Virus record (IMG/VR): IMGVR_UViG_3300025012_000026
Coordinates: 163,248 to 227,247 of that record
Direction: 5' to 3' (one strand)
DNA length: 64,000 bases
Source: a virus
Made by a program: the position numbers and the translations under genes. The notes beneath the pieces are model-generated. The model worked only from the letters and a program-made list of their open reading frames with translations. It ran no database searches and was not told where the DNA came from. Below are positions 3,067 to 62,882 of the stretch, piece after piece. Each line of letters starts with the position of its first letter. Positions within the stretch are counted from its first letter, which is position 1.

Positions 3067-3534
3067 TCAATGATCAATCGTAATCTTACCCAATTTCACA
3101 CAATGTTCACATCTACAAATTTTCCATCTATAGTAGTCCTCTGCTCCCATTAAACAATAATAAGGTTTTTTAGAATCATGATTCATATTATTAAATATGT
3201 GCCCATTTTTATGATTCAATTGTTTCTTCCTATCTACATAATCTCTAAAACTTTCTTCAACTTCCGAATTTGTATCAAATTGATTATAAGTATAATGATT
3301 AAACCAATTGCAACACCAAGTTTCATCTTCTACAAATTTATATTCAGCATTCTTAAATACAACTCCATTATGTTTTGCTAATATACCAAGTTTAAACTCT
3401 TGTAATTCATTTTCTAATTGACTAGCAGATGGATTATCTTTGTACATAATTGAATATCCTGTGCCATTGTTTTCAAAATCATCTTGATCCCAAGTTGCAT
3501 AAAATTTGTAGATTGGAAATTTATTTTCCATCAT
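3067..3534 (-). CDS. Hypothetical protein with C-terminal CxC-type cysteine cluster, 155 aa
   Basis: Unrecognised. Aromatic-rich (many Trp and Tyr) with a C-R-C-E-H-C metal-binding-looking cluster near the C-terminus. Its start abuts the stop of the upstream 72-aa gene, so the two are co-transcribed. Confidence 0.75.
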   Translation of the reverse strand: MMENKFPIYKFYATWDQDDFENNGTGYSIMYKDNPSASQLENELQEFKLGILAKHNGVVFKNAEYKFVEDETWCCNWFNHYTYNQFDTNSEVEESFRDYVDRKKQLNHKNGHIFNNMNHDSKKPYYCLMGAEDYYRWKICRCEHCVKLGKITIDH

Positions 3535-5138: not shown

Positions 5139-5795
5139 TTAAATTATATTAAACACAACCTGCTCATGCCCCAAACCTAAGACCAATCCCTCAATATCTT
5201 CTTGCAAATTAATCATAGCATCATCAAACAATTTCCTATCTTTACCAATTGTATTAACAACATTTTGCTGTGCTTGCATAGATAATATTTGAGTGTCAGA
5301 TGGACTAAATTGATCGAATAGAAACATTGTATTTCCATCTGTAATTTTAGAGTTTTGAGTGTTTTGTTCAATATATAATAATTGGACTCGATTCTTTGGG
5401 ATGCTTATGTATACTTTCCCATCTTCGATTTTCAGAACTTTTATGTATTCAAGACTGTTGATTCCAATTCCAAAATTATATTCGAAGTCAAGAGTGATTT
5501 CTCTTAAAGTGAACTTATCAAAGAATTTATCTTTATTAGTTATTTTGCTAAAATAATTGTATTTACCTTTTAATGATGTAATTTCACCTACTTTTCTTAA
5601 TTCATTTTGGATTAGAGTTGGGTCTTGCATCTTCTTTAATTCTGCTGTTCTTTCAATATCTTTTTGATAATCTCTTAGTTGCACTTGTTCAACTGGTATA
5701 GGTTTTGGTATAGATAGATTGTGATATTTCATATAAATATTTGTAGCAAATAAAGTTCCTAATATTGTTAAAGCAATAATTGTTGGTTTTTTCAT
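5139..5795 (-). CDS. Membrane-anchored protein resembling DUF4230, 218 aa
   Basis: An N-terminal signal-anchor (residues about 5-22) is followed by an extracytoplasmic domain. The segment around residues 75-135 resembles the DUF4230 family by eye, a family of unknown function found in envelope-anchored proteins. The family match is from pattern memory only. The small membrane gene at 4936 follows closely, so both may act at the cell surface. Confidence 0.75.
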   Translation of the reverse strand: MKKPTIIALTILGTLFATNIYMKYHNLSIPKPIPVEQVQLRDYQKDIERTAELKKMQDPTLIQNELRKVGEITSLKGKYNYFSKITNKDKFFDKFTLREITLDFEYNFGIGINSLEYIKVLKIEDGKVYISIPKNRVQLLYIEQNTQNSKITDGNTMFLFDQFSPSDTQILSMQAQQNVVNTIGKDRKLFDDAMINLQEDIEGLVLGLGHEQVVFNII

Positions 5796-5830
5796 TCAAC
5801 TCACTTCCTAGATTTTATTTTATGATTTAA

Positions 5831-6172
5831 TTAATCATTGTTAGGCATAGGCCCACGATGTAACTTAACCCAATCAGGCTTATATCTTTCAAGCAATTTA
5901 AACATATTGTCTCTTCCTACTCCATCTGCTGTATGAAGAAATATTTGTTTAGGATAAATATTTGGATTATATTGTCCTAATTCAATAAGATATTTTACAA
6001 AATCATATCCAGTTGGCTCATTTTCGCCTAAATCGTGATCCAAACTAATAATGTTCACCTCTTGATCTAATTCTTTTAATTCGTCAAGTTTATAAATTAA
6101 TTGACTTACTGTTTTTACTAATATAAACCCATCTGGGCAATCGCGCAAATCGTCAAGATATAGTGATATCAT
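5831..6172 (-). CDS. cREC-type receiver-domain protein (cyclic-phosphate processing receiver), 113 aa
   Basis: Stand-alone receiver-like domain. Its N-terminus (L-D-D-L-R-D-C-P-D-G) and the central S-L-D-H-D-L-G-E motif match the family annotated as cyclic-phosphate processing receiver (cREC), proposed on comparative grounds to act on cyclic-phosphate RNA ends. The acidic pocket Asp residues and the Asp of the DHDLG motif are all present. Not a partner of any visible histidine kinase. Strong GAAAGGGGAG site upstream. The biochemical role is prediction, not demonstrated. Confidence 0.8.
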   Translation of the reverse strand: MISLYLDDLRDCPDGFILVKTVSQLIYKLDELKELDQEVNIISLDHDLGENEPTGYDFVKYLIELGQYNPNIYPKQIFLHTADGVGRDNMFKLLERYKPDWVKLHRGPMPNND

Positions 6173-22210: not shown

Positions 22211-22567
22211 TCATCTACATAACTTTAAATTTTTTAACCAATTTAATTCTTTTGGAAAATCATCATAATCGATAATTCCCATATTAATACATGTCAATGT
22301 ATTAGGTTCTAAATCCGTCCATCCTCTATCTCTGATAGCGATATAACCTTTAACTTCTAATTCCTCTAATTTTGATTGCGGAGCATAAAGAATAATTTTC
22401 TTTTGATAATTCGTCATATATAATTCAATAGTTGAATCGTATTCCTTACTCTCATCAATCATAAAATTATAAAAATATACTGCTACTGCGTGTCCGACTT
22501 GACCTGCAAGTTTTCCTTTATTGATTTCAATATCTTCATTAACTAATATATACATTCTTAAATCCAT
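22211..22567 (-). CDS. Peptidyl-tRNA hydrolase 2 (PTH2)-like protein, 118 aa
   Basis: N-terminal M-Y-I-L-V-N-E-D-I-E-I-N-K-G-K-L-A-G-Q-V-G-H-A-V is the catalytic signature of archaeal/eukaryotic type PTH2, which frees tRNA from stalled peptidyl-tRNA. The second motif, usually D-x-G-x-T-x-x-x-P-x-S-x-T, appears as T-D-L-E-P-N-T-L-T. Normal length. Start at 22567 has AGGAG eight nt upstream. Fits the other RNA-related genes (RNA ligase, cREC, PemK). Confidence 0.83.
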   Translation of the reverse strand: MDLRMYILVNEDIEINKGKLAGQVGHAVAVYFYNFMIDESKEYDSTIELYMTNYQKKIILYAPQSKLEELEVKGYIAIRDRGWTDLEPNTLTCINMGIIDYDDFPKELNWLKNLKLCR

Positions 22568-22581
22568 AATTAAATCTCCTA

Positions 22582-22763
22582 TCAATCTCTAAAAATCAAT
22601 TCTTTATCTTGATAATCCTGACTAATAACTTCATACTTAAACTCAGTCAATATTGCATAATTTCTACAAGTCCTTCATTTTCTTGATTAAAAGACACCCA
22701 AATTACTTCTTTTATATTTGTGTCTTTACTTTTACAGTAAGGGCATGGGATGTTGTTTATCAT
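22582..22763 (-). pseudogene. Small CxxC protein split by a -1 frameshift
   Basis: From ATG 22763 (AAAGGAG upstream) a 38-residue frame with C-P-Y-C ends at 22647. From about 22663 another frame reads on as Y-A-I-L-T-E-F-K-Y-E-V-I-S-Q to a stop at 22582, looking fully protein-like. One extra A in the GAAATT run would fuse them into about 60 residues. Confidence 0.5.
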
Positions 22764-22777
22764 TATTTACTCCTTTT

Positions 22778-22984
22778 CTAACATGGATAACCTTCATGTA
22801 ATTCATCTCTTGAATCAGTATAAAAACTTTCTTGATACATGTCGCACTCTTCATTATCGCATTTGAAAATATCTCCCTCTTTCTCTATCCAAGATTGAGG
22901 GTACGACCAATAATGTTCTGCTACTTGACGCTTACCATAGTAATCTGTGCATTTTAATTCATAACTACAATATGGACATTCCAT
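22778..22984 (-). CDS. Zinc-ribbon protein, 68 aa
   Basis: Two Cys pairs, C-P-Y-C at the start and C-D-N-E-E-C near residue 42, with aromatic residues between. Typical phage zinc ribbon, function unknown. The ribosome binding site is weak. Confidence 0.65.
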   Translation of the reverse strand: MECPYCSYELKCTDYYGKRQVAEHYWSYPQSWIEKEGDIFKCDNEECDMYQESFYTDSRDELHEGYPC

Positions 22985-23069
22985 AAAAAAATATCACATC
23001 CAAATCTTTATCAGGAAGATATACTTCGTTTATCTCCATATATCTTCCATTTACTCCACTTTCTAAATC

Positions 23070-24779
23070 TTATTTCAAAACTCTCGCTCTAATTTCTGCT
23101 AAACTTTCATCTCTTACTAATTTTCCATCAATAAATACATCTTCAAGTAAATCAATAATATCAATTGCATCTTTTTCCATTTCATTTAATCCATCAACCA
23201 AATAGATACCATTTTCACCATCAACTACTGCAACCATTCCTTTTTGAGATTTTTTGATTCCACCAATATCGGTTTTAGGATCTTTAAAGATAAACTTTTC
23301 AACTCCATCAATAACCGTATAAGTGGCCTTTAAAGCGAACGAAAATGTGTCTCTGGTGTGATAACCTAAAGAATAACTTCCAACTCCGTATACGATGTTT
23401 TCTGCTGAAAACCCCTTTGCTTCTAATTGTTTGAAAGTTTCTTCTGCAATTTCTGGACTTATGCTATCTCCATATATTAAGCCCACATGACTATCTAGTA
23501 CCTTATACCCTTTACTATTAATAGTTCCTCCAAAGGTATCCCATAATGCTTCTACAGAACCCTTTTGCTCTATAGTTAATTTTACTTCTTTACAAATATG
23601 AACATTAGCACCATCAATATAATAATATTGTTTATCATGTCTATTCCAATCAATTTCAATAACAATTTCATAATGCTTATCTTGAAATTTAAAAATTGCA
23701 TCTTGCCTAGAAATACCATGTTCTCCATGAGGTGTATCATTTCTTATATCGTCAATTATTCTCTCCAACATAATTTCCTTGCAATCTTCCAGATTATCAC
23801 AATATTCTTCATTGGTTAAATCTTCAACAATCACATTACCGCAAATAATCTTTATTGGACTTCCAGAATCAGGACGAATGACACACTTACCATTTCTACT
23901 CATAATATCATCTTTCAATGAAGGTAAAATATTCCCCAAGACATTAAAATAATCATACCCATCACTAACTATACTTACAATTCCACTAGGGGCAACTTCA
24001 GTAATCATTCTCTTAAAATATCTCAAATCATCTTGATATCCACATTGAATACTATGTTCCGTTGCTAACACACTTGCTGAAACTAATTCCTTTTCCACAT
24101 TAACACCATAATATTGCTCTAAATATTGAATACTTGGAATCGTATCACTACCAGTAAAATATAATAAATGTCCTGCTCCTGTAGTTACTGCATCTTCATG
24201 ACCACTCATACCTCTATAACTAAAATTATGACATTGCCATTGAATATGATCTTTACTATCACATGTTTTCTCAGCCCACTTTTCACAAATGTCTCTATAT
24301 TTCTTTACAATTGTTGTTGCAGTAATTACTTTCCACATATTTGCGGAAATCAATGTCTCTAAGAAATTAGTCAACCAATAGAACTCTTTTTTAGTATTTT
24401 CAATTGTAAACACAGGAACTTTCATTGGAATCAATGTGCCTTCTTTTACTGCCTTGATTTTAATAGGAAGGTATCCTAAATCATGTAATGCTTCAATATG
24501 AGTTGTATCTGCACAATTATCTCCTAGAGAATTTTTAATGATTCTTTTATAATCTGCAACTACTATTGATTTATCAACATTGAAAAAGTTTTCATTGAAA
24601 TTATCAATTAGATAATCTTTAATAAATCCTTGTAAACCAAAGAATACTACTTCATTAATTCCTTCAATTCTTGAATGTCTAGGCGTAAATGTAGAATAAA
24701 TTTTTTCTGTACCTTTTTCACTCATAATGAGGTGGCTTATTTTGTACGAATCTGTCATTAACATTGGATTTGTTTTCAT
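23070..24779 (-). CDS. nadV: Nicotinamide phosphoribosyltransferase (NAMPT/NadV family), 569 aa
   Basis: Joins nicotinamide to PRPP to make NMN, the first step of NAD+ salvage; phage relatives called Namat use ADP-ribose pyrophosphate to make NAD+ directly. Conserved marks: S-Y-K-I-S-H at residue 11, the catalytic-His region A-T-E-H-S near 240, V-S-D-G-Y-D-Y-F-N, the phosphate-binding R-P-D-S-G, and F-K-D-P-K-T-D near the end. It is about 80 residues longer than human NAMPT owing to an insert between R-P-D-S-G and A-L-W-D-T-F-G-G. Last gene of a three-gene operon with PRPP synthetase; only one nt separates it from the gene above. Confidence 0.95.
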   Translation of the reverse strand: MKTNPMLMTDSYKISHLIMSEKGTEKIYSTFTPRHSRIEGINEVVFFGLQGFIKDYLIDNFNENFFNVDKSIVVADYKRIIKNSLGDNCADTTHIEALHDLGYLPIKIKAVKEGTLIPMKVPVFTIENTKKEFYWLTNFLETLISANMWKVITATTIVKKYRDICEKWAEKTCDSKDHIQWQCHNFSYRGMSGHEDAVTTGAGHLLYFTGSDTIPSIQYLEQYYGVNVEKELVSASVLATEHSIQCGYQDDLRYFKRMITEVAPSGIVSIVSDGYDYFNVLGNILPSLKDDIMSRNGKCVIRPDSGSPIKIICGNVIVEDLTNEEYCDNLEDCKEIMLERIIDDIRNDTPHGEHGISRQDAIFKFQDKHYEIVIEIDWNRHDKQYYYIDGANVHICKEVKLTIEQKGSVEALWDTFGGTINSKGYKVLDSHVGLIYGDSISPEIAEETFKQLEAKGFSAENIVYGVGSYSLGYHTRDTFSFALKATYTVIDGVEKFIFKDPKTDIGGIKKSQKGMVAVVDGENGIYLVDGLNEMEKDAIDIIDLLEDVFIDGKLVRDESLAEIRARVLK

Positions 24780-24780
24780 A

Positions 24781-25281
24781 TTATTTTACCTCTTTCTTAT
24801 TCATATTATTTAAATACTCAGCAACTTCTTCTAACGATTTAAAATACATTCCACCATTTCTTTCTACTATTAATCCGACCTGATTTAAAGATTTCATTTC
24901 TCCAATTGAAAAATTAATCTTATCATTTGGATAATTAATTTTATCTATAAACATATTAATATCAGGACTTCCAAGATAGCACATTGGATTTGGTACTTGT
25001 GTAATTATTGGAACTTCAGAATTTAATATACAAAATATAGTTTTTCCAGGACGTTTGTTGCTATCATCTATAACTTCTGCAATACTATAGACTCCACTCA
25101 TAGACGGAGTAATTACATATAAACAATAATCACATGTTTCACGTTGTCTACGCTCTTCTATCATACATTCTTCAGTCCAATCCTCTACAACTGGATTAAA
25201 ATAGTTAATATTAAGCATTGGAATTAATTTGTCTCTCCATATACTATTATTACAAGTACCGCCAAGGAATACTTTACTCAT
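24781..25281 (-). CDS. Nucleoside 2-deoxyribosyltransferase-like protein, 166 aa
   Basis: V-F-L-G-G-T-C-N-N-S-I-W-R at the N-terminus, an acidic R-Q-R-E-T-C-D-Y-C element and G-V-Y-S-I-A-E-V-I-D-D near residue 80 match the nucleoside 2-deoxyribosyltransferase-like family. Such proteins break or exchange N-glycosidic bonds, so a role on nicotinamide, NAD+ fragments or nucleosides is plausible. It sits between Prs and NAMPT genes and overlaps their translation signals, so it probably joins the same pathway. The predicted nucleophile is not certain. Confidence 0.8.
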   Translation of the reverse strand: MSKVFLGGTCNNSIWRDKLIPMLNINYFNPVVEDWTEECMIEERRQRETCDYCLYVITPSMSGVYSIAEVIDDSNKRPGKTIFCILNSEVPIITQVPNPMCYLGSPDINMFIDKINYPNDKINFSIGEMKSLNQVGLIVERNGGMYFKSLEEVAEYLNNMNKKEVK

Positions 25282-25284
25282 GAC

Positions 25285-26109
25285 TTAATTACCTTCTTTC
25301 ATAATTTTATATACTTCAATTTTATCATTTAATGATTCATTCATAATAGTATCTGTAGTGAAAACTTTATCAATCAAGTCTGTTTTAAATACATCGCCTT
25401 TGTAAATTGATTCCTCGCAATGTCCAACAACAAGATAAATTTCAGAAGCTCCAAGTTCTTTAAGTTGTTTTGCACCAAGCAAAAATGTTCCTCCATAACT
25501 TGATAAGTCATCCAACATTATTACTTTAAATCCTTTTTTCTTAACATCTCCAAAAACTTGAAGACTAGTAATTTTACCTGTTTGAAAATCTCTATGTTTA
25601 AATCCAACTAATTGATTTGGAACGCCAATCATTTTACTATAACGTTTCTCACTCGAAGCATCTGGGAAATAAACATAATCAGTATCATCATTGAAATTAA
25701 TTTTGTCTTTAATATCATAAAAAATATCTACAGATAGGAATCTACTTTTACAATTATTTAATAATGCAGGAGTTACATCAGAATGTGGTTCCAATACATG
25801 AATATAATCAAACCCTAAATTATTAATAAATTCTGCAATATATTTTAGTGTAAATGCTGAACCTCCTTCCGATCTATCCATTCTACTGTATGGCATGTAC
25901 ATGATATGTAGATTACAATTTATTTTTAATTGGTCTAGATATTTCTTTAAGAACAATAGTTTAATCAAGTCTGCATCTGATTGATACTTAAATGTAGTTA
26001 ACGAATTATTAACACCTCCTAAAATCTCATTAATTTGTTGTTCATTGAGTTTTGTTTCCCCATTTGGGAATGTAGTAAAATCTAATAGTTTGTTATTTAA
26101 CCAAATCAT
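25285..26109 (-). CDS. prs: Ribose-phosphate pyrophosphokinase (PRPP synthetase)-like, 274 aa
   Basis: Family features: M-P-Y-S-R-M-D-R near residue 90 (ATP/ribose-phosphate loop), V-L-E-P-H-S-D-V near 125 and the PRPP-binding V-I-M-L-D-D-L-S-S-Y-G-G-T loop near 200. About 40 residues shorter than bacterial Prs. It would provide PRPP for the NAMPT; in the phage NARP1 pathway the homologue Adps makes ADP-ribose pyrophosphate instead. Sequence alone cannot tell which. ATG at 26109 follows CAGGAGG. Promoter at 26144-26173. Confidence 0.9.
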   Translation of the reverse strand: MIWLNNKLLDFTTFPNGETKLNEQQINEILGGVNNSLTTFKYQSDADLIKLLFLKKYLDQLKINCNLHIMYMPYSRMDRSEGGSAFTLKYIAEFINNLGFDYIHVLEPHSDVTPALLNNCKSRFLSVDIFYDIKDKINFNDDTDYVYFPDASSEKRYSKMIGVPNQLVGFKHRDFQTGKITSLQVFGDVKKKGFKVIMLDDLSSYGGTFLLGAKQLKELGASEIYLVVGHCEESIYKGDVFKTDLIDKVFTTDTIMNESLNDKIEVYKIMKEGN

Positions 26110-26143
26110 TTTGTTTCCTCCTGAAATATTTATTTCTATATTC

Positions 26144-26173
26144 ATACTACCACAATTTAGCATAATAAGTCAA
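26144..26173 (-). promoter_or_regulatory. Promoter of the NAD-rebuilding operon
   Basis: TTGACT (26168-26173), 18-nt spacer, TAGTAT (26144-26149) on the minus strand, about 35 nt before the prs start. Confidence 0.7.
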
Positions 26174-26205: not shown

Positions 26206-26493
26206 TCAATCTAATTCTTCAAAACTAATTTTAATCCTCATTTTCTTTTGAATTTTATGTCTATATATTTCTTCATTGTCAAGATACATTTCTGAAAAAA
26301 TACTATTGGGATAAACCATTAATTTGCCTCCAATAAATTTCCCATCTTTATGCGAATATTTTCCACCAATATAATCCATAATCTCATCTGGTACTTCATT
26401 CGTTGCCTTCATAAAATTCTCTTCATCTACTTCCCAACAAAAACATTCTCCATCTCCTGTGGGCTTACCTATAAATTCAACTGATTTCTTCAT
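26206..26493 (-). CDS. Hypothetical protein, 95 aa
   Basis: No family recognised. ATG at 26493 follows AAAGGAGAGG; the open frame extends upstream without a site. It lies between the left pentamer array and the NAD operon promoter. Confidence 0.68.
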   Translation of the reverse strand: MKKSVEFIGKPTGDGECFCWEVDEENFMKATNEVPDEIMDYIGGKYSHKDGKFIGGKLMVYPNSIFSEMYLDNEEIYRHKIQKKMRIKISFEELD

Positions 26494-26590
26494 ACTAACC
26501 TCTCCTTTACACCAATAATAACTTATAAACCATAGCATAAATCATCACCATTACAAACATAATCAACTGTCCCTTAATTTTTTAAAGATT

Positions 26591-26688
26591 TATAAATACT
26601 TAACTCAAAATACCTAACTTAACACAACTCATCGCAACTTAACTCAAACCAACATATCTAAACCAAACCCAAAATGCTTATCTTAATC
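26591..26688. repeat. Left degenerate pentanucleotide array (11-unit block)
   Basis: After the 9-nt spacers tataaatac (26591-26599) and tcaaaatac (26605-26613), eleven consecutive pentamers of type N-N-A-W-C run from 26614 to 26668 in unbroken phase (one, tcaaa, lacks the C), then the spacer ccaaaatgc (26669-26677) and two more units reach the stop of the 154-aa gene. Same grammar as the large array at 27183-27571. No ORF. Position: directly downstream of the 154-aa gene. Confidence 0.85.
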
Positions 26689-27151
26689 AAAAACTATTAC
26701 TTAATACCAATTTACTCTTCTTTTTATTTAACAATTTTAATTCTGTACATCCTCCAGCAAGCATAGCATGAAGTGTTTTTGCTCTATCAGAAACATGCCT
26801 AAATGCCTCCAATCCCTCTTTTGACATTTCATTAACAGGAGCATATTGTAATACTTGATACCCTTTATCAATCTTATTAAAACCACTCTTAATATGTTTT
26901 AAAGACATATCAGTATATTCATCTGGATTAACAATTGAATATCCTTGACCTGCTAAGGATTTAATAGTTTTACTTGATTCAAGTAATTTCTTTTTTGTTT
27001 TACCAATAATAGAATAATATTTAGGTGTATTTTGACTTTCTTTAATAACCTCTTCAATTTCACTATGTAATATCGTAGTGTCATAATCCATTTTTACAAT
27101 ATACTCAAATAGTAATTCCCATTTTTCTTTTTTATTTACTAATTCATTCAT
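26687..27151 (-). CDS. Hypothetical helical protein lying between the two pentamer arrays, 154 aa
   Basis: N-terminal winged-helix-like half: I-V-K-M-D-Y-D-T-T-I-L-H-S-E-I, Y-Y-S-I-I-G-K-T-K-K-K-L-L, then G-Q-G-Y-S-I-V-N-P-D-E-Y as a wing-like hairpin. The C-terminal half is helical and basic at the end. This resembles phage DNA- or RNA-binding regulators, but no named family is recognised. Its 5-prime leader is the 389-nt right array and its stop overlaps the left array, so it is the prime candidate to bind them. Confidence 0.75.
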   Translation of the reverse strand: MNELVNKKEKWELLFEYIVKMDYDTTILHSEIEEVIKESQNTPKYYSIIGKTKKKLLESSKTIKSLAGQGYSIVNPDEYTDMSLKHIKSGFNKIDKGYQVLQYAPVNEMSKEGLEAFRHVSDRAKTLHAMLAGGCTELKLLNKKKSKLVLSNSF

Positions 27152-27182
27152 TCTTATATCTCCTTTATTATTCTTATTTTGC

Positions 27183-27571
27183 CCATAATGCCTATCAAAT
27201 CACAGCGTATCGTACCTCAACGAAACCCATCTCAACACAACTGATCCTAAAATGCCTAACAAAACCAAACTCATCACATTCAAGACGCAACTGAACATAT
27301 CTAATCATATCCCAACTTAAAATACATAACAGAACTTATCCCATCCAATCATAACGCAACAGAGCGAAACTGAACCTAAAATACTCATCAAAGCATATCC
27401 AAACCCACCCAAACCCTACTCAACGAAACTGAACATATATTGCTCAACTTAACTCGGCCAAACTTATCATAACGCATTTTATCTCGACGTAACGTAGCAT
27501 ATATTGCTTAACTTATCGTAGCTTGCCCTATCCCATCTTAACTCGCCCCAACCCAACAGAACCTAAAAATC
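27183..27571. repeat. Right degenerate pentanucleotide array, six blocks separated by 9-nt spacers
   Basis: This fills the gap between the 154-aa and 192-aa genes and has no ORF. On the plus strand about 65 pentamers N-N-A-W-C (C almost invariant, position 3 mostly A, position 4 A or T) run in strict 5-nt phase. Spacers at 27183, 27247, 27317, 27376, 27435, 27499 and 27563 (ccataatgc, ctaaaatgc, ttaaaatac, ctaaaatac, atatattgc twice, ctaaaaatc) reset the phase. Blocks hold 11, 12, 10, 10, 11 and 11 units, so super-units are 59-70 nt. The plus strand is A/C-rich, the transcribed RNA G/U-rich (G-W-U-N-N). Confidence 0.92.
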
Positions 27572-27576
27572 ATATC

Positions 27577-28155
27577 TTACTCTACTTCTTCGACTACAGC
27601 TACAAACTGTCCATACTTAGGTCTACTATCACACAGTCCTACATATTTCCCTGCAAAATCAATGCTTTGAATTACAGCTTCTAGATCAATTTGAGACTCT
27701 TCATAATTTACAAAGAATGTAACTTGCCATGTGTCAAATCTTGCTCTAGTTCTTAAAATTGAAGCATTATTTACTTTCATAACTCTAACATCTCTATACT
27801 TTAAATCTGCTTTCAATTGTTCTTTGGTAAGATTTTCACCATATGCAAAAGGTATGTATAACGGTTCAACTGATAAGAATTTCTGAATAGCTGTGCCTTT
27901 CTTAATAGACTTAGCTCCATTTCTAATTGTGGCCTCTACATTTTCTGCTGGCATAAAAGTTCCCATATTATCCTTCCAATACAGACCACATTCCCATTCT
28001 AAGTCTGCAATCATTTCATGATCTTCGTCAGTTTTTGTTCTCTTACCCGTATATTTCTTTAGTTCCTTAGTTAGAGGATGAAGTGGGTTAACTCCTTGGT
28101 TTGAGTGCATAATTAATGGGGTAATACCTTTCCATGTAACTTTAAGTTTTTTCAT
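27577..28155 (-). CDS. Conserved phage protein upstream of the pentamer array, 192 aa
   Basis: Pattern seen in many phages without assigned function: T-P-L-I-M-H-S-N-Q at residue 12, a T-G-K-R-T-K-T-D-E-D segment near 36, F-M-P-A-E-N-V-E-A-T-I-R-N-G-A near 67 and G-L-C-D-S-R-P-K-Y-G-Q-F near 175. The last two motifs loosely recall RAMP-fold RNA-binding proteins (Cas5/Cas7 type), which form filaments along RNA. That comparison is a guess from short motifs. Own promoter at 28202-28230; the array starts six nt after its stop codon. Confidence 0.82.
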   Translation of the reverse strand: MKKLKVTWKGITPLIMHSNQGVNPLHPLTKELKKYTGKRTKTDEDHEMIADLEWECGLYWKDNMGTFMPAENVEATIRNGAKSIKKGTAIQKFLSVEPLYIPFAYGENLTKEQLKADLKYRDVRVMKVNNASILRTRARFDTWQVTFFVNYEESQIDLEAVIQSIDFAGKYVGLCDSRPKYGQFVAVVEEVE

Positions 28156-28201
28156 TTTTAAACTCCCTCTTTCTTTTTAATTATTTATTTCTTACAAGTA
28201 A

Positions 28202-28230
28202 ATAATAACATGTTTATAGTAATTTGTCAA
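28202..28230 (-). promoter_or_regulatory. Promoter of the 192-aa gene and pentamer-array transcript
   Basis: TTGACA (28225-28230), 17-nt spacer, TATTAT (28202-28207) on the minus strand. No terminator is evident before the arrays, so these are probably transcribed. Confidence 0.75.
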
Positions 28231-28268: not shown

Positions 28269-28439
28269 TTAACTTATAAGACTTCTTCCTGCTTTATACA
28301 TTATGAATCCACCTATTGATACAACAATTGCGAATACAAAAACATTTATATTTGAATAACATATAAAATATGATCCACCAAAAGACAAAACAAAACCTAT
28401 AATTATAAATAATAATAATTTAAAAAATATCTCCCACAA
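28269..28439 (-). CDS. Two-pass membrane protein, TTG start, 56 aa
   Basis: Two hydrophobic helices (residues about 3-27 and 31-46) linked by C-Y-S-N and a basic tail. TTG at 28439 has GGGAG eight nt upstream. Almost abuts the preceding gene. Confidence 0.6.
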   Translation of the reverse strand: MWEIFFKLLLFIIIGFVLSFGGSYFICYSNINVFVFAIVVSIGGFIMYKAGRSLIS

Positions 28440-28441
28440 AC

Positions 28442-28756
28442 CTAACTCTCCCTCTCTTTAGGATTCTCCCAATCCAAAAATTCCTTCTCTGCTCTTTCTC
28501 TACAATCAGGACAAAACCCTCTACCCATTCCATCAGTACATAAATGAGCATTACCATCTTTACCACAATACCAACATAGATAAAAACTATTTTGTTTAGA
28601 GGGATGCCAAGGACTCTCTATGCTTCCTTCTTCAATGAAAAGATGTCCACATTCATTTTCAAATTCCTCATCAGTCATATTTTCAAAATGATCTGCAACT
28701 AATTTTAATTTATCTTCCATTGTTAATTGCAATGATTCTTCATCTGTCAATTCCAT
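28442..28756 (-). CDS. Zinc-ribbon protein, 104 aa
   Basis: Acidic helical N-terminus, then C-W-Y-C near residue 61 and C-P-D-C near 82, with an additional Cys/His pair. Unknown role. AAAGGAGTG upstream. Confidence 0.75.
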   Translation of the reverse strand: MELTDEESLQLTMEDKLKLVADHFENMTDEEFENECGHLFIEEGSIESPWHPSKQNSFYLCWYCGKDGNAHLCTDGMGRGFCPDCRERAEKEFLDWENPKERES

Positions 28757-28773
28757 TTATTTCACTCCTTTAT

Positions 28774-29457
28774 TTATAACATCACAATATCATTATAAAT
28801 CAACCTATGTTTCTCATCAATCCACCTATCCTCATGATAGTGGCCGAAATACCATTGCTTATAGTCCAATTTCTCTTCTAATACCTCAAAATACTTGTTA
28901 ATTGATGTTAAACTCTTTACGTATAATCCTGCCATTAACTTCTCAAAAACACTCTGAGAACAATCATGCGAAACAATAAGGTCAATTTTCCAACCACACT
29001 TATCTAGATTGCTCATACCTTCTTCATACTCAGCATTAGATGGCATTTCTCTTTTCCACCATGATTTGCCTTCAGTCCTATTCCCTTTATCAATTGAATC
29101 AGCTCCACCAAAAGTAAATATCTTTTTGCCATTGATATTAAATACCTGTCCACGCATTAAATGGATAACACTGTCATTAATAAAATGTACCTTACCACCA
29201 TTCCATATTGAGACTGGCATCTTATCTAGCATTGAATGGTTCTCATGGTTTCCATCTATCCATAAACTAACATAATTTTTCTTATGTAACCAGTTTAACC
29301 AATATTCTTCTTCCTTGTCTCCATTCCATACAAGTCCAAAATCACCACAAATTATCATGTAATCGTTTTTAGTCAGTTCTTTTTGAAGAGGGAAGTTTTT
29401 CATATTAAATCTTGGCAGGCCCATACTTCCATGAGTGTCACCACTAATGAATATCAT
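28774..29457 (-). CDS. Calcineurin-like metallophosphoesterase, 227 aa
   Basis: All five metallophosphoesterase motifs are in order: S-G-D-T-H-G near residue 5, G-D-F-G near 42, G-N-H-E-N-H near 72, S-H-D-C near 168 and F-G-H-Y-H-E-D near 205. These enzymes use two metal ions to cut phosphoesters; phage copies act on nucleic-acid ends, cyclic phosphates or nucleotides. Substrate cannot be told. ATG at 29457 follows AAAGGAG. Confidence 0.92.
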   Translation of the reverse strand: MIFISGDTHGSMGLPRFNMKNFPLQKELTKNDYMIICGDFGLVWNGDKEEEYWLNWLHKKNYVSLWIDGNHENHSMLDKMPVSIWNGGKVHFINDSVIHLMRGQVFNINGKKIFTFGGADSIDKGNRTEGKSWWKREMPSNAEYEEGMSNLDKCGWKIDLIVSHDCSQSVFEKLMAGLYVKSLTSINKYFEVLEEKLDYKQWYFGHYHEDRWIDEKHRLIYNDIVML

Positions 29458-62784: not shown

Positions 62785-62815
62785 ATTATTGCACCTCCTA
62801 TTTTTTGATACCACC

Positions 62816-62882
62816 TAGCAGGATTGTTATGAACCCTGCTAACGCTCTGAGCTTAAGGCGTTTTATACTGGATCAGACCAGT
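62816..62882 (-). promoter_or_regulatory. Three contiguous hairpins in a leader
   Basis: Three stems follow one another: 62867-62882 (actgg/ccagt), 62841-62862 (aacgc/gcgtt) and 62816-62841 (tagcagg/cctgcta), 30 nt before the zinc-ribbon start. Could be a structured leader or a terminator cluster. No known riboswitch consensus is evident. Confidence 0.45.

What the first reader, a model, noticed from the sequence alone, without database searches (positions are those of the whole stretch)
26493..28230. Hypothesis: RNA wound on a ring or filament protein with a 5-nt footprint
In the transcript the units read G-W-U-N-N in runs of 10-12. The TRAP protein of Bacillus binds 11 triplets spaced by two nt around an 11-mer ring, a geometry strikingly like 11-unit blocks here, although the triplets differ (G-W-U, not GAG/UAG). 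The preceding 192-aa protein has faint RAMP/Cas7-like motifs, another family that coats RNA at fixed steps. The 154-aa winged-helix-like protein lies between the arrays. One of them could be the binder and the arrays a scaffold, sponge or autoregulatory leader.
Basis: inference. Interest (0 to 1): 0.85.

Follow-up and report, generated by a model that had tools for sequence, protein, structure and literature searches.

The report
A phage's 5-letter-repeat guide RNAs (VIPR)
The five-letter repeats are seven guide RNAs of a newly described CRISPR-like weapon (VIPR) carried by a large phage, and three of them can be decoded into addresses in the RNA-polymerase and capsid genes of competing phages.

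Summary
On the minus strand, 75 imperfect G-W-T-N-N units form seven blocks of 10-12, each ended by a 9-nt AU-rich element. Six blocks tile 27183-27562 without a gap; the seventh follows the 154-aa gene. The 192-aa protein is the binder. It is homologous to the solved SUSP1 Vipr protein (E = 2.4e-25 alone, 3e-44 as a family profile) and models as a Csm3/Cas7-type RAMP (pLDDT 92.5, Z 11). The 154-aa protein is the accessory Vap, with a winged-helix-like N-terminus. The locus is therefore a VIPR system (preprint PMC13142463): the array is guide RNA, not a TRAP leader, sponge or scaffold. Decoded with the published 1-nt-skip rule, guides b2 and b3 match two subfamilies of one phage RNA-polymerase family (YonO type; 20/20 and 18/18 bases). 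Guide b6 matches SU10-type major capsid genes (20/20). In all three the skipped base is the codon wobble position. What differs from the characterised systems is the GWU unit (GGY in SUSP1), the compact array without a structured tail, and the targets. The targets are predictions: no binding or silencing was tested. Guides b1, b4, b5 and b7 have no convincing target.

The parts
28202..28230 (-). promoter-like site TTGACA-17-TATTAT with extended -10, upstream of vipr
   Evidence: 11 of 12 consensus bases; consensus match only
27577..28155 (-). vipr gene, 192 aa: RAMP protein expected to coat the vrRNA
   Evidence: (PDB 36pp SUSP1 Vipr)
27563..27571 (-). degenerate 9-nt element GATTTTTAG before b1
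   Evidence: sequence
27499..27562 (-). guide b1: 11 units + GCAATATAT
27435..27498 (-). guide b2: 11 units + GCAATATAT; decodes to (I)TTENAMKWEK of YonO-type RNA polymerase
27376..27434 (-). guide b3: 10 units + GTATTTTAG; decodes to HSDGCGWIL of YonO-type RNA polymerase
27317..27375 (-). guide b4: 10 units + GTATTTTAA; no coherent target
27247..27316 (-). guide b5: 12 units with a 1-nt insertion + GCATTTTAG; collections not scanned
27183..27246 (-). guide b6: 11 units + GCATTATGG; decodes to QVEGSETTVF of SU10-type major capsid protein
26687..27151 (-). vap gene, 154 aa: accessory protein, winged-helix-like N-terminal domain, homologous to the Vap-position proteins of SUSP1-like loci
26669..26677 (-). 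9-nt element GCATTTTGG before b7
   Evidence: sequence
26605..26668 (-). guide b7: 11 units + GTATTTTGA, downstream of vap; target unclear

Best explanation
This is a VIPR (Viral Interference Programmable Repeat) locus of a large low-GC phage, probably of a Clostridium-like host. One minus-strand transcript would carry vipr, six tandem guide RNAs, vap and a seventh guide. Vipr, a Cas7/Csm3-like RAMP, would sit on the RNA one protomer per 5 nt, hold each G-W-U and expose each NN. The NN series pairs with DNA of the form NNxNNxNN, with one base skipped per unit. The RNP would then bind double-stranded DNA and block transcription of target genes. The targets would be genes of rival phages: two subfamilies of YonO-type RNA polymerase (b2, b3) and SU10-type major capsid genes (b6). 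The skipped base falls on the codon wobble position, so synonymous changes would not give escape. Shown here: the array, its tiling, Vipr homology and fold, Vap homology, the association of such arrays with vipr in other phages, and the sequence matches to targets. Inferred from the published SUSP1 work: expression, RNP formation, DNA binding and silencing. Unknown: how the guides are cut apart and what the 9-nt element does.
For: Vipr: PDB 36pp SUSP1 Vipr at 2.4e-25 and 3e-44 by profile; 62 of 192 residues identical to SUSP1 Vipr; AF2 pLDDT 92.5, best folds Csm3/type VII Cas7. Array-vipr link: of loci fetched only by the DNA pattern (GWTNN)x7, 17 of 28 with at least 5 distinct units encode Vipr against 0 of 91 simple repeats, on the same strand in 17 of 17. 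All five annotated-phage relatives first examined carry GGCNN or GGTNN arrays. Vap. Targets by 1-nt skip: b2 20/20 in 8 contigs, b3 18/18 in one and 17/18 in two, both phrog_8308 = YonO; b6 20/20 in 6 contigs, PF17236/phrog_1328. Two contigs (G012, G013) with a b3 site also carry an SU10-type capsid gene, and a b6 contig (G008) carries the end of a phrog_8308 gene next to its capsid gene. The NN letters of all seven guides fit codon positions 1+2 in sense better than any other frame or strand (log-likelihood -186 against -200 or less). The phage's own RNA polymerase differs from guide b3 at 3 of 18 bases.
Against: No expression or binding data exist for this locus. The unit is GWU, not GGY, and no structured 3' tail like that of SUSP1 is evident. 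The skip rule was published for another VIPR clade. b1, b4 and b7 gave no convincing target and b5 was not scanned. In the three decoded guides the last unit does not match, which needs the added assumption that it belongs to the tail. The target contigs were fetched with 16 of the matched bases, so only the extra bases (4 for b2, 4 for b6, 1-2 for b3) and the family coincidence are independent. The b2-type contigs carry no SU10 capsid gene, and the capsid genes of G012 and G013 do not match b6 within 3 bases, so no single record carries all three sites. 71 guides from other array loci scored against 1.16 Mb of fetched contigs showed no skip rule above chance.
Confidence: 0.93

Rival explanations
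1. The locus is VIPR-derived, but its GWU guides use another skip rule or regulate the phage's own or host genes rather than rival phages; the polymerase and capsid matches are coincidence of conserved protein motifs.
For: b1, b4 and b7 have no clear target, and b7 best resembles a Clostridiaceae chromosomal motif CYIGDNAEVR (11 genomes against 2 for the reversed pattern at up to 2 mismatches). Wobble-phase patterns are enriched in conserved protein families by nature.
Against: 20/20 and 18/18 matches, two guides falling in the same protein family, and linkage of b3-bearing polymerases with capsid genes of the b6-targeted family in the same contigs.
Confidence: 0.12
2. TRAP-like ring: an 11-mer protein binds 11 triplets spaced by 2 nt to control translation of the downstream gene.
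For: Same 5-nt spacing and about 11 units per block.
Against: No TRAP-like protein was identified: the flanking protein is a RAMP with a solved Vipr homologue. Block length varies from 10 to 12, and the NN letters read as codon positions 1+2.
Confidence: 0.02
3. The arrays act as DNA: binding sites for the winged-helix 154-aa protein, as a partition or origin iteron.
For: Vap has a winged-helix-like domain and lies between the arrays.
Against: The array strand is always that of vipr (17 of 17). NN letters are free, unlike iterons. SUSP1 arrays are transcribed and co-purify with Vipr (PMC13142463).
Confidence: 0.03
4. Ordinary simple-sequence (pentanucleotide) repeat grown by slippage.
For: Many IMG/VR hits of the same pattern are such repeats.
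Against: Units here are diverse (23 distinct among 50 exact GWT units) with exact tiling, and simple repeats never sit with vipr (0 of 91).
Confidence: 0.01

Closest known systems
VIPR of Escherichia phage SUSP1 (Vipr + Vap1 + vrRNAs, PMC13142463; PDB 36pp)
   Same: RAMP Vipr next to a Vap-type DNA-binding-like protein, pentanucleotide guide units with free NN, guides both between and beyond the genes, decoded targets skip the wobble base
   Different: unit GWU instead of GGY; six guides between vipr and vap instead of one upstream and three downstream; 9-nt AU-rich delimiters instead of a structured (pseudoknot) tail; Vipr only about 32% identical; targets are polymerase and capsid genes of other phages instead of a satellite
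VIPR loci in the IMG/VR contigs L075 and L120
   Same: Vipr 64 and 63% identical, Vap about 46-49% identical, GTT units, same GYATTWTRR delimiter, same gene order
   Different: different guide letters; targets not sought in the collections
CRISPR type III Csm3 / type VII Cas7 backbone proteins
   Same: RAMP fold (Z about 11), periodic RNA coating (established for Csm3)
   Different: 6-nt periodicity with contiguous guides read in 5-nt segments; no CRISPR repeats or cas genes beside this locus
Bacillus TRAP
   Same: 5-nt spacing, about 11 units
   Different: unrelated protein, GAG/UAG triplets, ring, regulates trp genes

Membership tests
VIPR | Vipr protein homologous to the SUSP1 Vipr RAMP | tested here: met
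   36pp_D E 2.4e-25; 62 of 192 residues identical
VIPR | RAMP fold (RRM core, G-loop, thumb) in a single small protein | tested here: met
   pLDDT 92.5, best matches Csm3 and type VII Cas7; C-terminal G-rich stretch seen; thumb not examined separately
VIPR | tandem 5-nt units, fixed triplet alternating with free NN, 9-16 per guide | tested here: met
   10-12 units, GWT + NN
VIPR | fixed triplet is GGY or 'a related consensus' (preprint fig. S17, not readable here) | tested here: inconclusive
   GWT found, not GGY; whether fig. S17 lists GWT could not be read
VIPR | vap gene next to vipr | tested here: met
   154-aa protein homologous to Vap-position proteins of L139-L142, which are in turn homologous to that of L143; L143 Vipr is 99% identical to SUSP1 Vipr
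VIPR | conserved structured 3' tail on each guide | tested here: inconclusive
   only a 9-nt AU-rich element is conserved; no stable hairpin is evident
VIPR | 1-nt-skip targets in other mobile elements | tested here: met
   b2, b3, b6; by sequence only, not by binding
VIPR | vrRNA expressed and bound by Vipr; RNP binds DNA and silences | not testable with these tools
   needs wet-lab work
TRAP | TRAP (MtrB) protein and GAG/UAG triplets | tested here: not met
   triplets are GWU; Pfam and PHROGs scans of the two flanking proteins give no TRAP hit
CRISPR-Cas | CRISPR repeats with spacers and cas genes | tested here: not met
   no cas gene among the 10 neighbouring proteins scanned; the 9-nt delimiter is not a CRISPR repeat

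The most novel reading that the evidence does not exclude
An undescribed VIPR subtype: GWU-reading Vipr with a compact array in which short 9-nt elements bound each guide, much as CRISPR repeats bound spacers. Its guides strike the transcription machinery (two RNA-polymerase subfamilies) and the capsid gene of rival phages, while the phage's own polymerase is spared by three mismatches.
Probability: 0.35. Interest if true: 0.75.

Novelty: new member of a known kind. Interest (0 to 1): 0.6.

Why it matters
VIPR is a proposed ancestor-like relative of CRISPR, first reported in April 2026. This locus shows the same code written on a different scaffold triplet (GWU), so scaffold recognition by Vipr appears to vary within the SUSP1-like branch (GGC, GGT, GGA-like and GTT units in relatives). 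That makes RNA specificity of a RAMP a tractable comparative question. The decoded targets give concrete, testable predictions: a large phage that silences rivals' RNA polymerase and capsid genes, with the wobble base ignored.

Tried and rejected
Rfam: no family matches the arrays. Simple-repeat explanation rejected. Targets for b4, b1 (in 18 target contigs only) and b7: no coherent phage gene; b7's CYIGDNAEVR hits in Clostridiaceae may be chance. Guides of other array loci against fetched contigs: no skip rule above chance. Tail folding: no conserved hairpin. Two paper searches before the PDB hit found nothing. The supplement of the VIPR preprint could not be read. The in-frame-insertion (intein) idea for the phage's own polymerase was dropped: the insertion carries its own GIY-YIG-like ORF and breaks the frame.

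Full report
Observation. The minus strand of 26605-27562 carries 75 parsed units of the form G-W-T-N-N in seven blocks. Position by position: G 73/75; T 43 and A 22 at position 2; T 68 at position 3; the last two positions free. Within the window such runs occur only here and only on this strand: 45 start positions reach 6 or more of 10, the plus strand reaches at most 4, and 60 Markov resamples reach at most 6. The 227-kb virus record holds no second such locus. Blocks b1-b6 tile 27562-27183 exactly; b7 follows the 154-aa gene. Each block ends in a 9-nt element (GYATTWTRR or GCAATATAT). The same element precedes b7, and a degenerate form precedes b1.

What the neighbours are. The 192-aa protein belongs to phrog_4652. 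A profile of 19 relatives hits one solved structure strongly, PDB 36pp 'SUSP1 Vipr protein' (E 3e-44); the window protein alone gives 2.4e-25, with 62 of 192 residues identical. Its AlphaFold2 model (pLDDT 92.5) resembles Csm3 and type VII Cas7 RAMPs (Foldseek 8e-06; Z 11.2, rmsd 3.4 over 157 residues). The 154-aa protein has a winged-helix-like N-terminus. It is homologous to the accessory proteins beside Vipr in Pseudomonas phages Medea1 and LESphi2 (L140, L142; E 2e-06 and 6e-04), with weaker hits to the Gordonia and Mycobacterium ones. All of these are homologous to that of Citrobacter phage Mijalis, whose Vipr is 99% identical to that of SUSP1. A consensus promoter-like site (11 of 12) lies 47 nt upstream of vipr.

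The link between arrays and this protein. Contigs were fetched from IMG/VR by the DNA pattern alone. Of 28 with diverse units, 17 encode Vipr; of 91 with simple repeats, none does (Fisher p 1.3e-13); strand agrees in 17 of 17. Some rows of the Vipr profile come from these loci, but the PHROG profile, built independently, matches 18 of 19 members. Conversely, the annotated-phage relatives examined carry 5-nt arrays with other triplets: GGC in Gordonia, Mycobacterium and Pseudomonas phages, GGT in Felix O1-like phages; the IMG/VR relatives L004 and L006 carry (G/T)GA.

Known system. PMC13142463 (bioRxiv, April 2026) describes VIPR. Vipr is a RAMP. vrRNAs are 9-16 GGY/NN units. NN letters pair with DNA with one base skipped per unit, giving transcriptional repression and phage defence. 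Seven types use GGY/NN 'or a related consensus'. The window locus meets the tested defining features except two left open: the triplet is GWU, and no structured tail is evident.

Decoding the guides. With the 1-nt-skip rule, IMG/VR was scanned with 8 units (16 bases) of b2, b3, b4, b6 and b7. b6 gave 15 contigs; six match 20 of 20 bases over ten units, in frame, at QVEGSETTVF of an SU10-type major capsid protein. b2 gave 44 contigs; eight match 20 of 20, in frame, at ITTENAMKWEKF. b3 gave 8 contigs; three share HSDGCGW(I/M)L, one at 18 of 18 and two at 17 of 18. The proteins hit by b2 and b3 belong to one family, phrog_8308, which includes SPbeta YonO, annotated as a DNA-directed RNA polymerase in phage records. 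Contigs G012 and G013 hold both a b3 site and an SU10-type capsid gene; G008 holds the b6 site beside the end of a phrog_8308 gene. However, no single record carries exact sites for all three guides. In every case the guide is coding-sense, the skipped base is the wobble base, and only the last unit next to the 9-nt element fails. In the fetched contigs, guides with shuffled unit order reach at most 15-18 bases. The NN letters of all seven guides together fit codon positions 1+2 in sense best, a test that does not depend on the database hits, though it was weak for b3, b4 and b5 taken singly. The phage's own YonO-like polymerase has the homologous site HTDGCGMML with 3 of 18 bases different, as expected if self is spared (inference).

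Host. The exact b2 site occurs in a Clostridium sartagoforme contig and one bacterial MAG among 84,980 species genomes. GC (28.8%) fits a Clostridium-like host. This is inference.

Limits. The seed bases were used to fetch the targets, so only the extension bases and the family coincidence count as independent evidence. b1, b4 and b7 lack a convincing target; b5 was not scanned. Guides of other loci found nothing above chance in 1.16 Mb. Nothing was tested for expression or binding. The supplement of the preprint was not readable, so the GWU unit and the array layout may already be listed there; hence 'new member' rather than 'new variant'.

Verdict. VIPR membership is near certain. The target reading is probable (about 0.85 for b2, b3 and b6).

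Noticed in passing
window 62809-62882 (-): Pistol self-cleaving ribozyme (RF02679, 55 bits) in the same phage.
   Followed up: no
window 22211-26163 (-): Block of nucleotide-salvage genes: PTH2-like, nicotinamide phosphoribosyltransferase, nucleoside deoxyribosyltransferase-like and PRPP synthetase.
   Followed up: partly
L274:3373-7005 (G000:C1): The phage's own YonO-like RNA polymerase gene is interrupted by a stretch carrying a GIY-YIG-like ORF (222 aa, 5210-5878), which looks like a mobile intron.
   Followed up: partly
L001/L019 versus window 28269-28445: A related contig is 99.9% identical through the VIPR locus up to 28269 but only 84.6% identical over 28445-29442: a recombination junction just upstream of the vipr promoter.
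   Followed up: partly
L139:2880-3200 and L141:4148-4500: In Gordonia and Mycobacterium phages GGCNN arrays alternate with hairpins that resemble a tRNA T-arm (GTTCGA); no tRNA or Rfam hit.
   Followed up: partly
L112:214-303 (-), L060:1189-1238 (-): Arrays made purely of GATNN units; L112 also encodes a divergent Vipr, L060 none in the stretch held.
   Followed up: partly
L004:4564-5330, L006:4564-5500: Vipr relatives with (G/T)GANN units and separators resembling TTTAACTTATTAA; a third kind of triplet in the SUSP1-like branch.
   Followed up: partly
L075:1787-1871 and 3181-3319: Two nearly identical guides in one phage, apparently a recent duplication of a guide block.
   Followed up: no
G164:C25:278044-278072 and others: Guide b7 resembles CYIGDNAEVR coding sites in several Clostridiaceae chromosomes (18/18 over nine units in one); may be chance.
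   Followed up: partly
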